This document shows positions 46,327 through 50,443 of a stretch of 64,000 nucleotides of DNA, one piece after another. The DNA lies in contig NZ_JAIGNU010000001.1 in assembly GCF_019711655.1 (NCBI RefSeq), positions 1,769,501 to 1,833,500 on the forward strand, read 5' to 3'. The notes beneath the pieces are model-generated. The model worked only from the letters and a program-made list of their open reading frames with translations, searched no databases and was not told the DNA's origin. Each line of letters opens with the position of its first letter. Position 1 is the stretch's first letter. The stretch comes from Qipengyuania mesophila. GTDB taxonomy: Bacteria > Pseudomonadota > Alphaproteobacteria > Sphingomonadales > Sphingomonadaceae. Position numbers and translations under genes: made by a program.

Positions 46327-46968
46327 TTACCAGCGGACGAGCGGCGGGACCGTAATCCGGCCGATTACGCCGCCAAGGACGACCGGCAGGACATGCCAGC
46401 TGCCGAGATGCGCCAGCGTGTCGACCGGGCAAGCAAGGCCATGTGCGAAGGTGCCCAGCGATCCGGCCGCGATCCCTGTCAGGGTGCCCGCCAGCGGCGG
46501 CGACACCGGCGCGCCGCGGCGCAGCCAGACGATCAGCGCGACGAAGGTCAGCCCGCCGAACTCGATCCCGGCAATGAGACATCCAAAGCCGTAGGGATCG
46601 TGTGCGACCTGCCCCAGGTCGCCTTGCAGGCCGAGCACGACCAGCGCGGCGACGGGCAGCAGCGCGGCCATAGCCAGCGCCCAGCGCGTGCCTTCGTGGC
46701 TGTTGCCCACTTGCGGGGAAGCCATGCGGATCGCCGCCAGGGCTGCGGCGGTGCCGAGCATGGCGAACATGCCGTTGGCGATGAAGAACAGGGGCGAGGC
46801 CTGGCCCGTCGCGATGCCGCGCCAGAATCCGTCGATGACTTCGACCAGCACCACGGCCACGAGCGTCGCGGTAGCGACCAGCGCGATGCCGCGCGCGCGT
46901 CTGAGCGGCCGGACGGGCGCGAGGTCCGCGGCGAGCTCGTCGATCAGCGAATGGGGCACGCGATTCAT
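46327..46968 (-). CDS. nrsF: NrsF anti-sigma-F factor (DUF1109), six-helix membrane protein
   Basis: This 213-residue polytopic inner-membrane protein matches the Caulobacter NrsF family that sequesters sigma-F and releases it on heavy-metal stress. Six helices are visible after a short cytoplasmic N-terminus. Two cysteines only: Cys130 (YGFGCLIAG) and Cys180 (HGLACPVDT), almost at the positions of the two conserved sensory cysteines in Caulobacter NrsF. It starts 1 bp past the sigF stop, so both are translated from one message. Confidence 0.9.
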   Translation of the reverse strand: MNRVPHSLIDELAADLAPVRPLRRARGIALVATATLVAVVLVEVIDGFWRGIATGQASPLFFIANGMFAMLGTAAALAAIRMASPQVGNSHEGTRWALAMAALLPVAALVVLGLQGDLGQVAHDPYGFGCLIAGIEFGGLTFVALIVWLRRGAPVSPPLAGTLTGIAAGSLGTFAHGLACPVDTLAHLGSWHVLPVVLGGVIGRITVPPLVRW

Positions 46969-46969
46969 G

Positions 46970-47500
46970 TCAGTCTGCTTTCTCTACGAGCGCGGACAGC
47001 TTCTTCAATCCGCGATGGATATTCACCTTGACCAGGCTCTCGCTCTGGCCCGTTCGCGCCGAGGCTTCGGCAATCGACAGTCCCTCGATCTTGACCAGTT
47101 CGATGGCCTCGCACTGCCCTGCCGAGAGGTGCACGAACAACCGCTCGAGACTCATCCGCGCCATGACCGCCTCCTCGTCGCTGTCCTCGATCGCATCGTG
47201 ATCGCCCAGCTCGTCCTCGGCCTTGCGATAGACCCGGCGCAAATGATCGACCCAGCGATAGCGCGCGATCGCCGCGAGCCAGGGCAGGAAGGCACGCCCG
47301 GGGTCCCAGCTCGCGCGCTTGGCATGGACCGCCAGCAGCACTTCCTGGACCAGGTCGTCGAGCTGCGCAGGCGCGACGCGGCGGCGGAAATAGCGTTCGA
47401 GCCACAGCCGGATTTCGGCCAGCAGCACGCGATAGGCCGCGGCATCGCCCTTCTGCGAAGCGGCCATCAGCCGGGCCAGGCTGGCTTCGTCGGCGATCAT
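46970..47500 (-). CDS. sigF: ECF sigma factor SigF
   Basis: This 176-residue extracytoplasmic-function sigma factor has region 2 (LDDLVQEVLLAVHAKRASWDPGR and IARYRWVDHLRRVYRK) and region 4 (LFVHLSAGQCEAIELVKIEGLSIAEAS, with the helix-turn-helix QSESLVKVNIHRGL). It directs RNA polymerase to metal-stress promoters. Genes upstream on the same strand, DoxX and bufA1, sit behind a sigma-F-type promoter, which predicts autoregulation. ATG at 47500 is preferred; an upstream in-frame start would overlap the DoxX gene. Confidence 0.92.
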   Translation of the reverse strand: MIADEASLARLMAASQKGDAAAYRVLLAEIRLWLERYFRRRVAPAQLDDLVQEVLLAVHAKRASWDPGRAFLPWLAAIARYRWVDHLRRVYRKAEDELGDHDAIEDSDEEAVMARMSLERLFVHLSAGQCEAIELVKIEGLSIAEASARTGQSESLVKVNIHRGLKKLSALVEKAD

Positions 47501-47522
47501 CGCAGGCCTCCCATGCGCCAGC

Positions 47523-47984
47523 CTACCACCCGGCGCGGGCACGCGCGAGCAGCACATCCGCCGCCAGAGGCCCGCCGCCGCGCGAGACGAGCACCGCCGC
47601 CATCGCGACCCACGCCATATGCGTCTGCCACCACGCCTCGGGATAGACGAAGACCTGGATCACCAGCGTCATCGCCAGCAGCGCCAGCGCCGATATGCGG
47701 GTGAACAGGCCCAACACCAGCAGGATCGGGAAGAGGTGTTCGGCATAGGTCGTCAGCGGGGCGGCGATGGCCGGGGGTAGCGGGACACGGGTATACTCGT
47801 ATTCGAACAGGAAGCGCGCCTGCTCGCCGATCGTCAGCAGCGTGCCCTCGGCCACCTTGGTGCGTCCCGAGCGCCAGAATACGCCCGCCAGCGCCAAGCG
47901 CGAGAGCAGCAGCGCCAGTCCCTCGGGCCATCGCGAGGCGAGCCATGCGGCGAGATTGTCGTAACGGGCGAGCAGCGTCTGCAT
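47523..47984 (-). CDS. DoxX-family membrane protein of the bufferin locus (BufD-like)
   Basis: This 153-residue protein has four membrane helices typical of DoxX: LALLLSRLALAGVFWRSGRTKV, PLTTYAEHLFPILLVLGLF, ISALALLAMTLVIQVFVYPEAWW and WVAMAAVLV. DoxX proteins accompany bufferin precursor genes, and are thought to act in the membrane redox step of the metal response. It lies between bufA1 (21 bp upstream) and sigF (22 bp downstream), so the four minus-strand genes make one operon. Confidence 0.88.
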   Translation of the reverse strand: MQTLLARYDNLAAWLASRWPEGLALLLSRLALAGVFWRSGRTKVAEGTLLTIGEQARFLFEYEYTRVPLPPAIAAPLTTYAEHLFPILLVLGLFTRISALALLAMTLVIQVFVYPEAWWQTHMAWVAMAAVLVSRGGGPLAADVLLARARAGW

Positions 47985-48005
47985 CGGGCTGGACCTCGGT
48001 GCCGC

Positions 48006-48293
48006 TCAGCGCGTGACCGGGGTCAGCGATCCCTTGCCCTTGGGTGTCGCGGTTTTCTCGCAGGTGCCCTTGGGCACGAGCTTCCAGGCATTGCCCTGGT
48101 AGTCGCGGGTCGAGGTGCCCGCGCAGCTGGTGCCGGGGCCCGCCGCGCAATCGTTCTCGCCCGCCTTGGCGACGCCATAGCATTTCTCCATGGCGGGCTT
48201 CTTCTGTGCCGCGGCGGGGCTGGCGGCGAGGCCGGCAGCCGCACCGGCGGCCAGGGCGATACGGGCAAGGCGGGTCAGGGGCTGTGCGATCAT
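48006..48293 (-). CDS. bufA1: Bufferin precursor, BufA1/DUF2282 type
   Basis: This 95-residue protein has a signal peptide (about 1-30, ending AAAQ), so it is exported. The mature core has four cysteines: Cys38 ([11 protein letters not shown]), Cys49 (ENDCAAG), Cys57 (TSCAGT) and Cys78 (KGTCEK). This is the DUF2282 pattern, the ribosomally made, post-translationally modified precursor whose cysteines are converted by the DUF692 oxidase to thiooxazoles that bind copper. It is the first gene of the minus-strand operon, behind a sigma-F-type promoter. Confidence 0.9.
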
Positions 48294-48354
48294 GGGGTCT
48301 CTCTCGAATGAGGTTTGACAATGTGATCCGGCGTCGGGCCAGGTCGAGCGGACA

Positions 48355-48380
48355 TTCGCCGGGTCGGGACACCGCGTTAC
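48355..48380 (-). promoter_or_regulatory. Sigma-F promoter of the bufA1-doxX-sigF-nrsF operon
   Basis: On the minus strand: GTAACG (48380-48375), 16 nt, then CGAA (48358-48355). This matches the Caulobacter sigma-F consensus GTAACC-N16-CGAA with one -35 change. The -10 lies about 60 bp from the bufA1 start. Confidence 0.8.
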
Positions 48381-48404
48381 AGCACAGGTGAATTTTCCGG
48401 CCGT

Positions 48405-48430
48405 GTAACCGGCACGGCGGGGCGGGCGAA
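48405..48430 (+). promoter_or_regulatory. Sigma-F promoter of the bufA2-bufB-bufC operon
   Basis: GTAACC (48405-48410), 16 nt, then CGAA (48427-48430): an exact match to the Caulobacter sigma-F consensus. The -35 elements of the two divergent promoters are 24 bp apart. The -10 lies about 50 bp from the bufA2 start. Confidence 0.85.
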
Positions 48431-48481
48431 GAAGGCCGTGTGCGCATTTCCGCGCAGGACGACAGGAGAGGATCCGACCCG

Positions 48482-48766
48482 ATGACCGCCATCCGCAAAC
48501 CCGCAAGTGCCGCCGCCGCAGCTGCCTTCGCGCTTTCCTCCATGGCCGCATTCGCCGCCGAACCGCCCGCCGGAAGCAGTGGCCGGGCGCTCGGCGCCGA
48601 GGACACCGTCCATTGCTACGGCGTCAACAGCTGCAAGGGCACTGCCGACTGCGCGACCACGCAGCACGAGTGCAAGGGCCAGAACGAATGCAAAGGCCAC
48701 GGTTTCAAGGCGTTGAAGGCGGGCGACTGTCTCGCCAAGGGCGGCATGATCGGCGACCTTGGCTGA
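48482..48766 (+). CDS. bufA2: Bufferin precursor, BufA2 type
   Basis: This 94-residue protein has a signal peptide ending near Ala26 (AAFAAEPP), then a Cys-rich core with six cysteines at 45, 51, 57, 64, 70 and 83. The spacing is a regular CxnC ladder ([34 protein letters not shown]). CYGVNSCKG...CKGQNECKG is the BufA2 pattern, distinct from the DUF2282 precursor on the other strand. It is presumably matured by BufB/BufC encoded downstream and sequesters copper in the periplasm. Confidence 0.88.
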
Positions 48767-48839
48767 GCGCCCGGCGGCCCGGCAGCCTCATCAGCCCCCG
48801 ATCGGGCATGCCGGGTCGCCACCCATCGCACGCACTTCC

Positions 48840-49676
48840 ATGAACGACATCGCCCCATTCCACGGCTTCGGCCTCGGCCTCCGCCGGGCGCACTACGCCG
48901 ATTTCCTCGGCGGTGCGGTGCCGGTCGATTTCGTCGAGGTCATTTCCGAGAACTACATGGTCGTGGGCGGCAAGCCGCTGCGCGTGCTCGAACAGGTGCG
49001 GCAGGAGCATCCGGTGATCCTTCACGGCGTGTCGCTCTCGGTCGGCTCGGCGCATGGACTAGAGCCGGACTATCTCGCACGCCTGCGCAAGCTCGCCGAG
49101 CGGATCGAGCCGCTGTGGGTTTCCGATCACCTGTGCTGGACCCGTACCAGCGCGCATAACAGCCACGACCTCCTGCCGCTGCCGCTGACCCGCGAAGCGC
49201 TCGATGTCGTCTGCGCCAATATCGACCGCGCGCAGGAGGCGCTCGGCCGGGCCATGCTGTTCGAAAATCCCTCGAGCTATCTGACCTTTCCCGAGGACGA
49301 GATGACCGAATGGAAATTCCTTGCCGAGATGGCGCGGCGTACGGGCTGCTATCTGCTGCTCGACGTGAACAATGTCCATGTGAGCGCGCGGAACCACGAT
49401 TTTTCCGCCGCCGACTATCTTGCCGGGCTACCGCTCGATCGCGTCCGGCAGATTCATCTCGCCGGGCACCAGCCGGGCGAGCTCGTGGTCGATACGCATG
49501 ATCGCGCGGTGTGCGAGGACGTCTGGGCGCTCTACGCACAGGTCATCGCCCGGACCGGTCCCGTCGCGACGATGATCGAGCGCGACGACAATATTCCGCC
49601 GCTCGTCGAGCTGCTGCGCGAACTCGACCATGCCCGCGCAATCGCGGGCGCGCGCCAGAGGAGCGTGGCGGCGTGA
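48840..49676 (+). CDS. bufB: Bufferin maturase, multinuclear non-haem iron oxidase (BufB, DUF692)
   Basis: This 278-residue TIM-barrel protein of the DUF692/MNIO family installs thiooxazole on precursor cysteines, using iron. It opens with HGFGLGLRRAHYADF, and conserved metal-ligand segments include VDFVEVISENYM, HGVSLSVGS, WVSDHLCWT, LFENPSSYLTF, LLDVNNVHVSARNH and IHLAGHQ. These supply the His/Asp/Glu ligands for the iron sites. ATG at 48840 is preferred; a TTG at 48759 inside bufA2 is less likely. The stop overlaps bufC as GTGA. Confidence 0.92.
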   Translation: MNDIAPFHGFGLGLRRAHYADFLGGAVPVDFVEVISENYMVVGGKPLRVLEQVRQEHPVILHGVSLSVGSAHGLEPDYLARLRKLAERIEPLWVSDHLCWTRTSAHNSHDLLPLPLTREALDVVCANIDRAQEALGRAMLFENPSSYLTFPEDEMTEWKFLAEMARRTGCYLLLDVNNVHVSARNHDFSAADYLAGLPLDRVRQIHLAGHQPGELVVDTHDRAVCEDVWALYAQVIARTGPVATMIERDDNIPPLVELLRELDHARAIAGARQRSVAA

Positions 49677-50443
49677 GCGGGCTGGCGCAGCGGCAGGCGG
49701 CGGTTCTCGGTGCGATCCTCGACGAGGAGGCGGCGCTGCCCGAAGGCTGGGGCGAGCGGCAGGCGCGCGGGCTGGCGATCTATCGCAACAATTACCGCAG
49801 CGCGCTGGTCGAGGCGCTGCGAGCTACCTTCGAGCGAACCGAACGGCTGGTCGGCGCCGATGCCTTCGCCCGCGCCGCCGCGCATCACTGCATCATGCAC
49901 CCGCCGAGCGGCTGGACGCTCGACCTGGTCGGCGACGGCTTTGCCGAGACCTGCGCCGCGCTTTTCGCCGGCGATCCCGACGTCGCCGAACTCGCCGCGC
50001 TCGAATGGGCGATGCACCTTGCCTTTACCGCGCGCGATGCCGTGGTGCTGAGCCCCGAAGGCTTCGCCGCGGCGACTGCAGATTTCGGCGAGCGCGAGTG
50101 GGACCGGCTCTCGCTCGCCCTCGTTCCCTCGCTCCGCTGCGTTGCCGCGACACGCGACCTCGTGCGCCTGTGGTCATCGCTCGCCAGGGATGGCGACGCG
50201 GACCTAGCGCCACTCGATGCCCTGCATGTCGCGGTCGTCTGGCGCGAGGACGAGCGCCCGGTCTTCGTGCTGCGCCCCGAATGGGAGGGCAGCGCGATCG
50301 ATGCCTTCCACGCGGGCGCCAGCTGGGGCGATGTCTGCGCAGCCATGTTCGCGTCGCTGGGCGAGGACAGGGCCATTGCCGAAGCCGGTGCGATGCTCGC
50401 GCGCTGGGTGGCCGAAGGGTGGATCGAAGCGATCGCTCAATAG
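49673..50443 (+). CDS. bufC: Bufferin maturation partner BufC (DUF2063/HvfC-type)
   Basis: This 256-residue protein with an N-terminal DUF2063 domain: AIYRNNYRSALVEALRATFERTERLVG is the signature, followed by AAHHCIMHPPSGWTLDLVGDGFAE. It binds the precursor leader and presents it to BufB. It starts within the bufB stop, which couples the pair in stoichiometry. A winged C-terminal part (VVWREDERPVFVLRPEWEG) completes the protein. The last 7 bp overlap the convergent SDR gene. Confidence 0.9.
   Translation: MSGLAQRQAAVLGAILDEEAALPEGWGERQARGLAIYRNNYRSALVEALRATFERTERLVGADAFARAAAHHCIMHPPSGWTLDLVGDGFAETCAALFAGDPDVAELAALEWAMHLAFTARDAVVLSPEGFAAATADFGEREWDRLSLALVPSLRCVAATRDLVRLWSSLARDGDADLAPLDALHVAVVWREDERPVFVLRPEWEGSAIDAFHAGASWGDVCAAMFASLGEDRAIAEAGAMLARWVAEGWIEAIAQ

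What the first reader, a model, noticed from the sequence alone, without database searches (positions are those of the whole stretch)
46327..50443. Compact two-precursor bufferin (copper RiPP) locus under one sigma-F/NrsF switch
Both precursor types (a DUF2282 BufA1 with 4 Cys and a BufA2 with 6 Cys), one MNIO oxidase (BufB), one BufC partner, a DoxX protein and the sigF-nrsF pair lie within 4.1 kb, split into two divergent operons. I know the Caulobacter case as having separate buf operons controlled by sigma-F. Here a single maturase pair would have to serve two different substrates, and the sigma factor sits in the operon it controls. This makes a self-contained metal-response module that could be transferred as a unit.
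Basis: partly seen in the sequence, partly recalled or inferred. Interest (0 to 1): 0.85.

Follow-up and report, generated by a model that had tools for sequence, protein, structure and literature searches.

The report
One enzyme pair, two copper peptides
A 4.1-kb gene cluster encodes two different precursors of predicted copper-binding peptides but only one predicted modifying enzyme pair, beside a regulatory switch that likely controls both; related bacteria that lack one precursor yet have this enzyme pair and the other precursor indicate that the pair likely modifies both kinds.

Summary
bufA1 (DUF2282, 4 Cys), doxX, sigF and nrsF lie on the minus strand; bufA2 (6 Cys), bufB (MNIO) and bufC (DUF2063) on the plus strand. 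The genome has one MNIO and one DUF2282 gene. Two back-to-back SigF-type promoters (GTAAC[C/G]-N16-CGAA) fill the 188-bp gap and are conserved in relatives. The arrangement is common in the family, and a complete copy sits on a Sphingobium plasmid. Of 199 family genomes, 39 have both precursors; 26 of those have exactly one MNIO, always of the Buf2-linked ("type-2") clade. In a nested clade of 19 loci bufA2 is absent, yet bufA1 with all four Cys faces the same type-2 bufBC, the only MNIO found in those genomes. In the only two Buf1 genomes of that draw without MNIO, Buf1 lacks exactly the two central Cys. So the type-2 pair most likely matures both precursors. The question whether one pair serves several precursors is already in print; the handover series is what this adds. 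Copper induction and Cys modification are untested. New variant of a known kind.

The parts
46327..46968 (-). nrsF, membrane anti-sigma factor; its only two Cys are residues 130 and 180, next to the positions of the two Caulobacter NrsF cysteines (C131, C181)
   Evidence: Pfam NrsF 1.1e-37; Cys positions; C131/C181 from PMC3511200; equivalence by position, not by alignment
46970..47500 (-). sigF, ECF sigma factor (176 aa from ATG 47500; the longer frame opens at 47557)
   Evidence: Pfam Sigma70_r2 and r4_2; sequence
47523..47984 (-). doxX, DoxX-family membrane protein
   Evidence: Pfam DoxX 8.7e-16
48006..48293 (-). bufA1, Buf1 (DUF2282) precursor, 95 aa, N-terminal signal-peptide-like stretch, 4 Cys
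   Evidence: Pfam DUF2282 3.5e-26; only DUF2282 in genome
48355..48380 (-). SigF-type promoter for bufA1-doxX-sigF-nrsF: GTAACG-N16-CGAA
   Evidence: Caulobacter consensus GTAACC-N16-CGAA
48405..48430 (+). SigF-type promoter for bufA2-bufB-bufC: GTAACC-N16-CGAA
48482..48766 (+). bufA2, Buf2 precursor, 94 aa, N-terminal signal-peptide-like stretch, 6 Cys
   Evidence: alignment A1 with 17 relatives; single match in own genome
48840..49676 (+). bufB, MNIO (DUF692) oxidase, type-2 (Buf2-linked) clade; predicted catalytic base Asp249, followed by Asp250
   Evidence: Pfam 2.7e-108; only MNIO in genome; trees; PDB 3bww 2.4e-35; residue numbers
49673..50443 (+). bufC, DUF2063 partner protein (PME type 1), GTG start overlapping bufB
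   Evidence: Pfam 2.2e-17

Best explanation
The locus encodes two bufferin-family precursors (Buf1/DUF2282 and Buf2), the genome's only MNIO with its partner BufC, and a SigF-NrsF pair with two back-to-back SigF-type promoters, and is predicted to work as a metal-induced module in which the single type-2 BufB-BufC pair likely converts cysteines of both precursors to copper-binding groups. Inferred mechanism: metal stress would act on the two NrsF cysteines and free SigF, which would fire both promoters at once, raising precursors, maturase and SigF-NrsF itself; BufBC would modify both precursors in the cytoplasm and Sec would export them to sequester metal in the periplasm. Inferred history: the maturase began as the Buf2 enzyme, a Buf1-dedicated pair (B1C1) was lost, and the Buf2 enzyme took over Buf1; in an Erythrobacter-like clade bufA2 was then lost, leaving a Buf2-type enzyme with Buf1 as its only bufferin partner found. 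Shown: gene content, single MNIO, promoter conservation, tree positions, no bufA2 found in that clade. Not shown: induction, modification, metal binding.
For: One MNIO and one DUF2282 in the genome. Both precursors with exactly one MNIO in 26 of 39 two-precursor genomes among 199 family genomes; all 26 MNIOs are type-2. Type-1 (Buf1-operon) and type-2 BufBs separate at 100/99 support; the bufA2-less BufBs form one clade (99/95) inside the window-type group; joining them with type-1 is rejected, p-AU 0.0003 (48 of 174 rows used, and the groups were named after a first tree). In the 16 named bufA2-less genomes there is exactly one MNIO each (16 of 16) and no Buf2 match above 29.7 bits; the three unnamed ones agree. 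Buf1 keeps 4 core Cys in 46 of 46 window-type and 19 of 19 bufA2-less copies, with median core pN/pS 0.13 and 0.11. In the only 2 of 66 Buf1 genomes without MNIO, Buf1 lacks exactly the two central Cys, the ones said to be modified. Divergent SigF-type promoters: both in 39 of 44 distinct Buf1|Buf2 gaps and 18 of 19 Buf1|BufB gaps, at the N16 spacing. The Caulobacter SigF regulon is copper-induced and sigF disruption makes cells copper-sensitive (PMC8224329, passages).
Against: No modification or induction data exist for this organism. Leaders of window-type and bufA2-less Buf1 are not more like Buf2 leaders than are leaders of type-1-served Buf1; they score lower, although the signal peptide is reported to act as leader in bufferin and oxazolin synthesis, so how one BufC reads both is open. 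13 of 39 two-precursor genomes keep two or more MNIO matches. The main bufA2-less clade is one event; the MNIO-less control is two genomes of one genus, and their Buf1 is of the stand-alone lipoprotein kind, not the cluster kind. The Asp after the catalytic Asp, linked in print to Cys-Lys (Buf2) substrates, is still kept in 11 of 19 bufA2-less enzymes.
Confidence: 0.75

Rival explanations
1. Only BufA2 is modified; BufA1 lost its maturase and now works unmodified (for example as a plain thiol or disulfide protein), the alternative named in PMC12452194.
For: BufB is of the Buf2-linked clade and carries the Asp linked in print to Buf2-type substrates; Buf1 and Buf2 leaders show no convergence.
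Against: Type-2 BufBC is kept in 19 loci where Buf1 is the only bufferin family found; all four Buf1 core Cys are kept in 65 of 65 window-type and bufA2-less copies; in the two genomes without MNIO the two central Cys are gone; a second lineage (G192 and a Sphingorhabdus MAG) has Buf1 directly in the operon of a type-2 BufBC.
Confidence: 0.15
2. The bufA2-less type-2 enzymes modify some unrelated substrate, and their Buf1 is a bystander kept for its promoter or its doxX-sigF operon.
For: MNIOs can take non-bufferin substrates (PMC12452194); no direct assay here.
Against: No Buf2-like ORF was recognised in the gap by eye or by profile; the Buf1 core is under strong purifying selection; Buf1 and BufBC keep the shared pair of SigF-type promoters in 18 of 19 loci.
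Confidence: 0.06
3. The module answers mainly to another stress (chromate, cadmium, gold) and copper chelation is secondary.
For: Caulobacter SigF targets are induced by chromate and cadmium (PMC3511200); the C. metallidurans homologues are gold-, silver- and copper-induced (PMC8224329).
Against: Caulobacter sigF mutants are copper-sensitive but not chromate- or cadmium-sensitive.
Confidence: 0.2
4. A second maturase set exists in the cell but was missed.
For: None found.
Against: Genome 100% complete by the tool's estimate, one MNIO by profile over the whole assembly.
Confidence: 0.02

Closest known systems
Caulobacter vibrioides SigF regulon with its two bufferin operons (CC3254-CC3257 and CC2907-CC2905)
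   Same: Same protein families, same SigF promoter consensus GTAACC-N16-CGAA, NrsF with two functional cysteines, both operons under SigF (PMC3511200, PMC8224329, passages).
   Different: Caulobacter has an MNIO and a DUF2063 gene in each of two operons; here one type-2 pair stands for both precursors, in two divergent operons sharing one 188-bp gap, with sigF-nrsF downstream of bufA1-doxX.
Bufferin gene clusters as surveyed in Antoine et al. 2025 (PMC12452194)
   Same: Core of precursor, MNIO, DUF2063, DoxX, SigF, NrsF; the paper notes genomes with several precursors and a single MNIO-PME1 pair and leaves open whether one pair serves all (sections read).
   Different: [quoted passage not shown] here they sit beside Buf2 genes, and in 16 variant loci sigF-nrsF are directly upstream of bufA2-bufB-bufC.
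Captophorins / fontiphorin FonABC (PMC13097082)
   Same: MNIO plus PME1 install thiooxazole; Cys-Lys (Buf2) MNIOs carry Asp after the catalytic Asp, as here (Asp249-Asp250).
   Different: FonBC acts on EGKCG repeats; no use of two natural precursor families by one pair is reported in the parts read (sections 13, 14 and passages).

Membership tests
Buf1 bufferin | DUF2282 domain with four conserved Cys | tested here: met
   PF10048 3.5e-26; 4 Cys in sequence
Buf1 bufferin | N-terminal Sec signal peptide | tested here: inconclusive
   hydrophobic N-terminus with ...SPAAAQ seen by eye; no signal-peptide predictor was available
Buf1 bufferin | two central Cys converted to thiooxazole, Cu binding | not testable with these tools
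   needs MS
Buf2 bufferin | six (or twelve) conserved Cys, next to MNIO | tested here: met
   6 Cys invariant over 18 rows; ends 73 bp upstream of bufB
MNIO (bufferin type) | PF05114 family with catalytic Asp and near-invariant polar residues | tested here: met
   (125 type-2 sequences); PDB relatives 3bww, 8hci, MbnB; metal ligands not checked one by one
MNIO Cys-Lys (Buf2) subtype | Asp after the catalytic Asp; clade with Buf2-linked enzymes | tested here: met
   Asp250; trees
PME type 1 partner | DUF2063 domain plus RRE-type domain | tested here: inconclusive
   DUF2063 met; no PDB sequence match; RRE part not tested
SigF-NrsF switch | NrsF with two conserved Cys; targets with GTAACC-N16-CGAA | tested here: met
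   the bufA1 side reads GTAACG
SigF-NrsF switch | metal-induced release of SigF | not testable with these tools
   needs expression data
Two-set bufferin system (one BufBC per precursor) | a dedicated BufB-BufC for each precursor | tested here: not met
   one MNIO only

The most novel reading that the evidence does not exclude
A natural substrate-handover series: the Buf2 maturase pair became a true dual-substrate RiPP enzyme acting on two precursor families with unlike leaders and Cys patterns, made the Buf1-dedicated pair dispensable, and in one clade, after bufA2 was lost, became a Buf1 enzyme, all inside one SigF-wired divergent cassette that also travels on plasmids.
Probability: 0.6. Interest if true: 0.75.

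Novelty: new variant of a known kind. Interest (0 to 1): 0.62.

Why it matters
The 2025 survey of this enzyme class left open whether one MNIO-partner pair serves several bufferin precursors or whether some precursors stay unmodified. The loci here give ready-made test strains: two-precursor/one-pair genomes, bufA2-less genomes with the same pair, and MNIO-less genomes whose Buf1 lacks the central Cys. They also pose a recognition question, since signal peptides act as leaders yet the two leaders do not look alike, and they give a 4.1-kb cassette holding precursors, maturase and switch.

Tried and rejected
Leader convergence: a profile of window-type Buf2 leaders was scored against Buf1 leaders. 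Window-type and bufA2-less Buf1 leaders scored lower (medians 10.5 and 7.1) than those of Buf1 in its own operon (16.7), the opposite of the idea; variant-type Buf1 leaders scored 20.1, not significantly different (three rows of the comparison set are Buf1 operons with a type-2 enzyme). Rejected.

A wider SigF regulon in this genome: GTAACN-N15..17-CGAA gives 34 sites, fewer than the reversed control's 55. The strict TGTAAC[C/G]-N16-CGAA form leaves four sites besides the two here, among the 30 of 34 sites that had loci, about what base composition predicts (my estimate, near 3). Not pursued as targets.

Recent transfer into this genome was not tested by composition; the locus recurs in the family, so it is treated as resident.

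The Buf1 and DoxX trees have few columns and were not used for branching claims.

What was dropped or not collapsed: of the 58 genomes with a match, only the 44 matches of 106 bits or more (42 genomes) were counted as Buf2; the rest have 43.6 bits or less and lie mostly at Buf1 places. 13 BufB rows without a clear precursor neighbour were left out of class comparisons, three far MNIOs and short rows out of the trees, loci of mixed class and odd-length leaders out. The same species occurs in both the named and unnamed sets (for example L036 and L209); rows were collapsed only where sequences are identical, and the Cys counts were not collapsed. 16 of the 19 bufA2-less loci are named records, 3 unnamed.
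Full report
What is there. The seven genes are present as described: minus strand bufA1 (48006-48293), doxX, sigF, nrsF; plus strand bufA2 (48482-48766), bufB, bufC. bufC's GTG start overlaps the bufB stop by 4 nt, and sigF and nrsF are 1 nt apart. The genome (3.13 Mb, 100% complete by the tool's estimate) holds one MNIO, one DUF2282, one Buf2 match and one NrsF. The nearest named BufB is that of Qipengyuania vesicularis, 82%.

Promoters. The published Caulobacter SigF element is GTAACC-N16-CGAA (PMC3511200, passages). The gap between bufA1 and bufA2 holds GTAACC-N16-CGAA facing bufA2 (48405-48430) and GTAACG-N16-CGAA facing bufA1 (48355-48380). In 83 distinct divergent gaps (window included), GTAA-N18-CGAA on both strands occurs in 39 of 44 Buf1|Buf2 gaps (one strand in 4, none in 1), 18 of 19 Buf1|BufB gaps (one strand in 1), 11 of 18 Buf1|SigF gaps (one strand in 2, none in 5), and 1 of 2 others. 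With the spacer changed to any of 12-17 or 19-24, at most 3 of 83 gaps match; the reversed pattern matches 0 of 83. Mononucleotide shuffles gave near zero. Genome-wide the element alone is not specific.

How common the arrangement is. 46 loci are of the window type, 40 of them with the exact order <NrsF <SigF <DoxX <Buf1 | Buf2> BufB> BufC>; 16 are a variant with sigF-nrsF directly upstream of bufA2-bufB-bufC, in 15 of them with bufA1-doxX divergent (L073 is a two-set locus). In 199 family genomes (tabulated): 70 have an MNIO, 66 Buf1, 42 Buf2, 39 both. Of those 39, 26 have exactly one MNIO and 13 have two or more; one of the 13, G018, probably counts one gene split over two contig ends. All 26 single MNIOs are type-2; in G031 and G152 Buf1 and BufB lie on different contigs. 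Of the 24 single-MNIO genomes with Buf1 but no Buf2, 19 MNIOs are type-1, 4 type-2 and 1 (G022, a fragment) was not typed. So in this draw, wherever one enzyme is left beside both precursors, it is the Buf2-linked one.

The maturase. Type-1 and type-2 are the two sides of the BufB tree: a clade of 39 rows with 36 of the 39 Buf1-operon enzymes, against the rest. A careful tree of 48 chosen rows (of 174; 10 of 19 bufA2-less, 12 of 40 distinct window-type, 11 of 36 type-1) puts type-1 on one side of a branch at 100/99, and the bufA2-less enzymes in one clade (99/95) whose sister rows (L048, L234) are window-type enzymes with bufA2. Holding type-1 and bufA2-less rows together is rejected (p-AU 0.0003; the groups were named after a first tree was seen, and the tool warns of long branches). 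A quick tree of 164 rows gives the same picture: support 87 for the 19-row clade and 97 for the enclosing set of 23 window-type and 19 bufA2-less rows. The root is for drawing only, so direction (loss rather than gain of bufA2) is inferred from the nesting.

The bufA2-less clade. In these 19 loci bufA1 faces bufB directly; no Buf2-like ORF was recognised by eye in the gap (whose output was cut), and the Buf2 profile found none. The 16 named genomes each have exactly one MNIO and no Buf2 match above 29.7 bits, against 113-120 bits in the seven control genomes with bufA2; the weak matches were not inspected and completeness of these records was not told. The three unnamed ones (G041, G121, G180) agree: one MNIO each, and no Buf2 match but one of 21 bits. 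A second, separate case is G192 and a Sphingorhabdus MAG, where Buf1 stands in the operon of a type-2 BufBC.

Cysteine control. Buf1 keeps four core Cys in 46 of 46 window-type, 19 of 19 bufA2-less and 15 of 15 counted variant copies, and in 37 of 38 copies in Buf1 operons (one has 2). In the family draw only G051 and G128 (one genus) have DUF2282 without MNIO, and their proteins lack precisely the two central Cys while keeping the first and last. These two are of the stand-alone lipoprotein kind; of the other 24 stand-alone hits, from genomes with an MNIO, 23 keep all four by my reading and one (L221) lacks the fourth. PMC12452194 says that the central pair is modified and the outer pair forms a disulfide (section read). 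In a class-wide draw, 133 of 135 Buf1 genomes have an MNIO; the two without (G421, G589) are fragmented assemblies and were not looked into. Purifying selection on the Buf1 core is strong: median pN/pS 0.11 (bufA2-less), 0.13 (window-type), 0.21 (Buf1 operons), uncorrected, with pS near saturation.

A specificity residue. PMC13097082 (section 14 read) links Asp right after the catalytic Asp to Buf2-type substrates. By motif position, Asp stands there in 92 of 97 distinct type-2 enzymes linked to bufA2 (37 of 40 in the window type), in 11 of 19 bufA2-less ones (7 Glu, 1 Ala) and in 1 of 36 type-1 enzymes. Window-type versus bufA2-less: Fisher p 0.003, not corrected for kinship, and Asp to Glu is mild. 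It is a hint of relaxation, no more.

Against the reading. Leaders do not converge. There are no wet data. The bufA2-less clade and the MNIO-less control are few events.

Regulator lineage. In the NrsF tree the window-type, bufA2-less and Buf1-operon NrsFs fall together (81 rows, support 91, with 1 variant row), apart from 15 of 16 variant rows (94) (quick method, long branches flagged). This fits, without proving, that the window's operon is the operon A1-B1-C1-doxX-sigF-nrsF minus B1C1, and that the variant was assembled separately. Two-set divergent loci of the supposed ancestral kind exist in Caulobacter sp. S45 (L080), Asticcacaulis (L089) and G020 (L158).

Transfer. tblastn of BufB against plasmids: 360 of 72,556 records match, 15 at 60-80% identity. 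The best, pBSY17_1 of Sphingobium sp. RAC03 (892,708 bp, typed non-mobilizable), carries all seven genes in the same order within 4.1 kb between unrelated genes; pR1a of Sphingomonas sp. R1 (also typed non-mobilizable) carries the variant. These were the two plasmid hits opened. Luteimonas kalidii (L062, a gammaproteobacterium by my knowledge of the genus) has a similar cluster with 71% BufB identity.

Literature. PMC12452194: abstract, sections 4, 14, 19, 20, 21 and passages; it already proposes that one MNIO-PME1 pair may modify several precursors, or that some stay unmodified. PMC3511200, PMC8224329 and PMC13419390: passages. PMC13097082: sections 13, 14 and passages. The original bufferin paper and Junger et al. 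2026 on the leader role of the signal peptide were not read; the latter is known from a citation. The listings of searches showed no title on the bufA2-less series (search 5 drew off-topic papers); only open-licence papers are covered.

Verdict.

Noticed in passing
L196, L198, L219, L244-L253 (stand-alone Buf1 genes): Many relatives carry a second Buf1 gene far from the cluster that looks like a lipoprotein (lipobox, acidic linker, then Buf1 core); L197, L212 and L213 are alike with a weaker lipobox. In L196-L198, L212, L213 and L250 a SigF-type promoter lies upstream, so a membrane-anchored bufferin may be matured in trans. The window genome has none.
   Followed up: partly
L254 (G051) and L255 (G128): DUF2282 lipoproteins in the two genomes of the draw without MNIO lack the two central Cys and keep the outer two.
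   Followed up: partly
L064, L075, L143, L206, L223, L240 and others (16 loci): Variant loci with sigF-nrsF directly upstream of bufA2-bufB-bufC, contrary to the published statement that sigma and NrsF genes are not found in Buf2 clusters.
   Followed up: partly
L159, L161, L238: A further MNIO lies next to a long Cys-rich protein (about 240 aa in L159 and L238) with a MGLNSCK motif and no obvious signal peptide; a different kind of possible substrate.
   Followed up: no
L062 (Luteimonas kalidii): Window-like cluster outside the family, with sigF placed after bufC instead of beside nrsF and nrsF matched in two overlapping frames; its genome has two MNIOs.
   Followed up: no
L021 and L026 (window genome C1:1542779 and C1:1892138): SigF-type sites upstream of an msrA-like gene and of a small membrane protein gene (my reading of the ORFs); the number of such sites in the genome is about chance level.
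   Followed up: no
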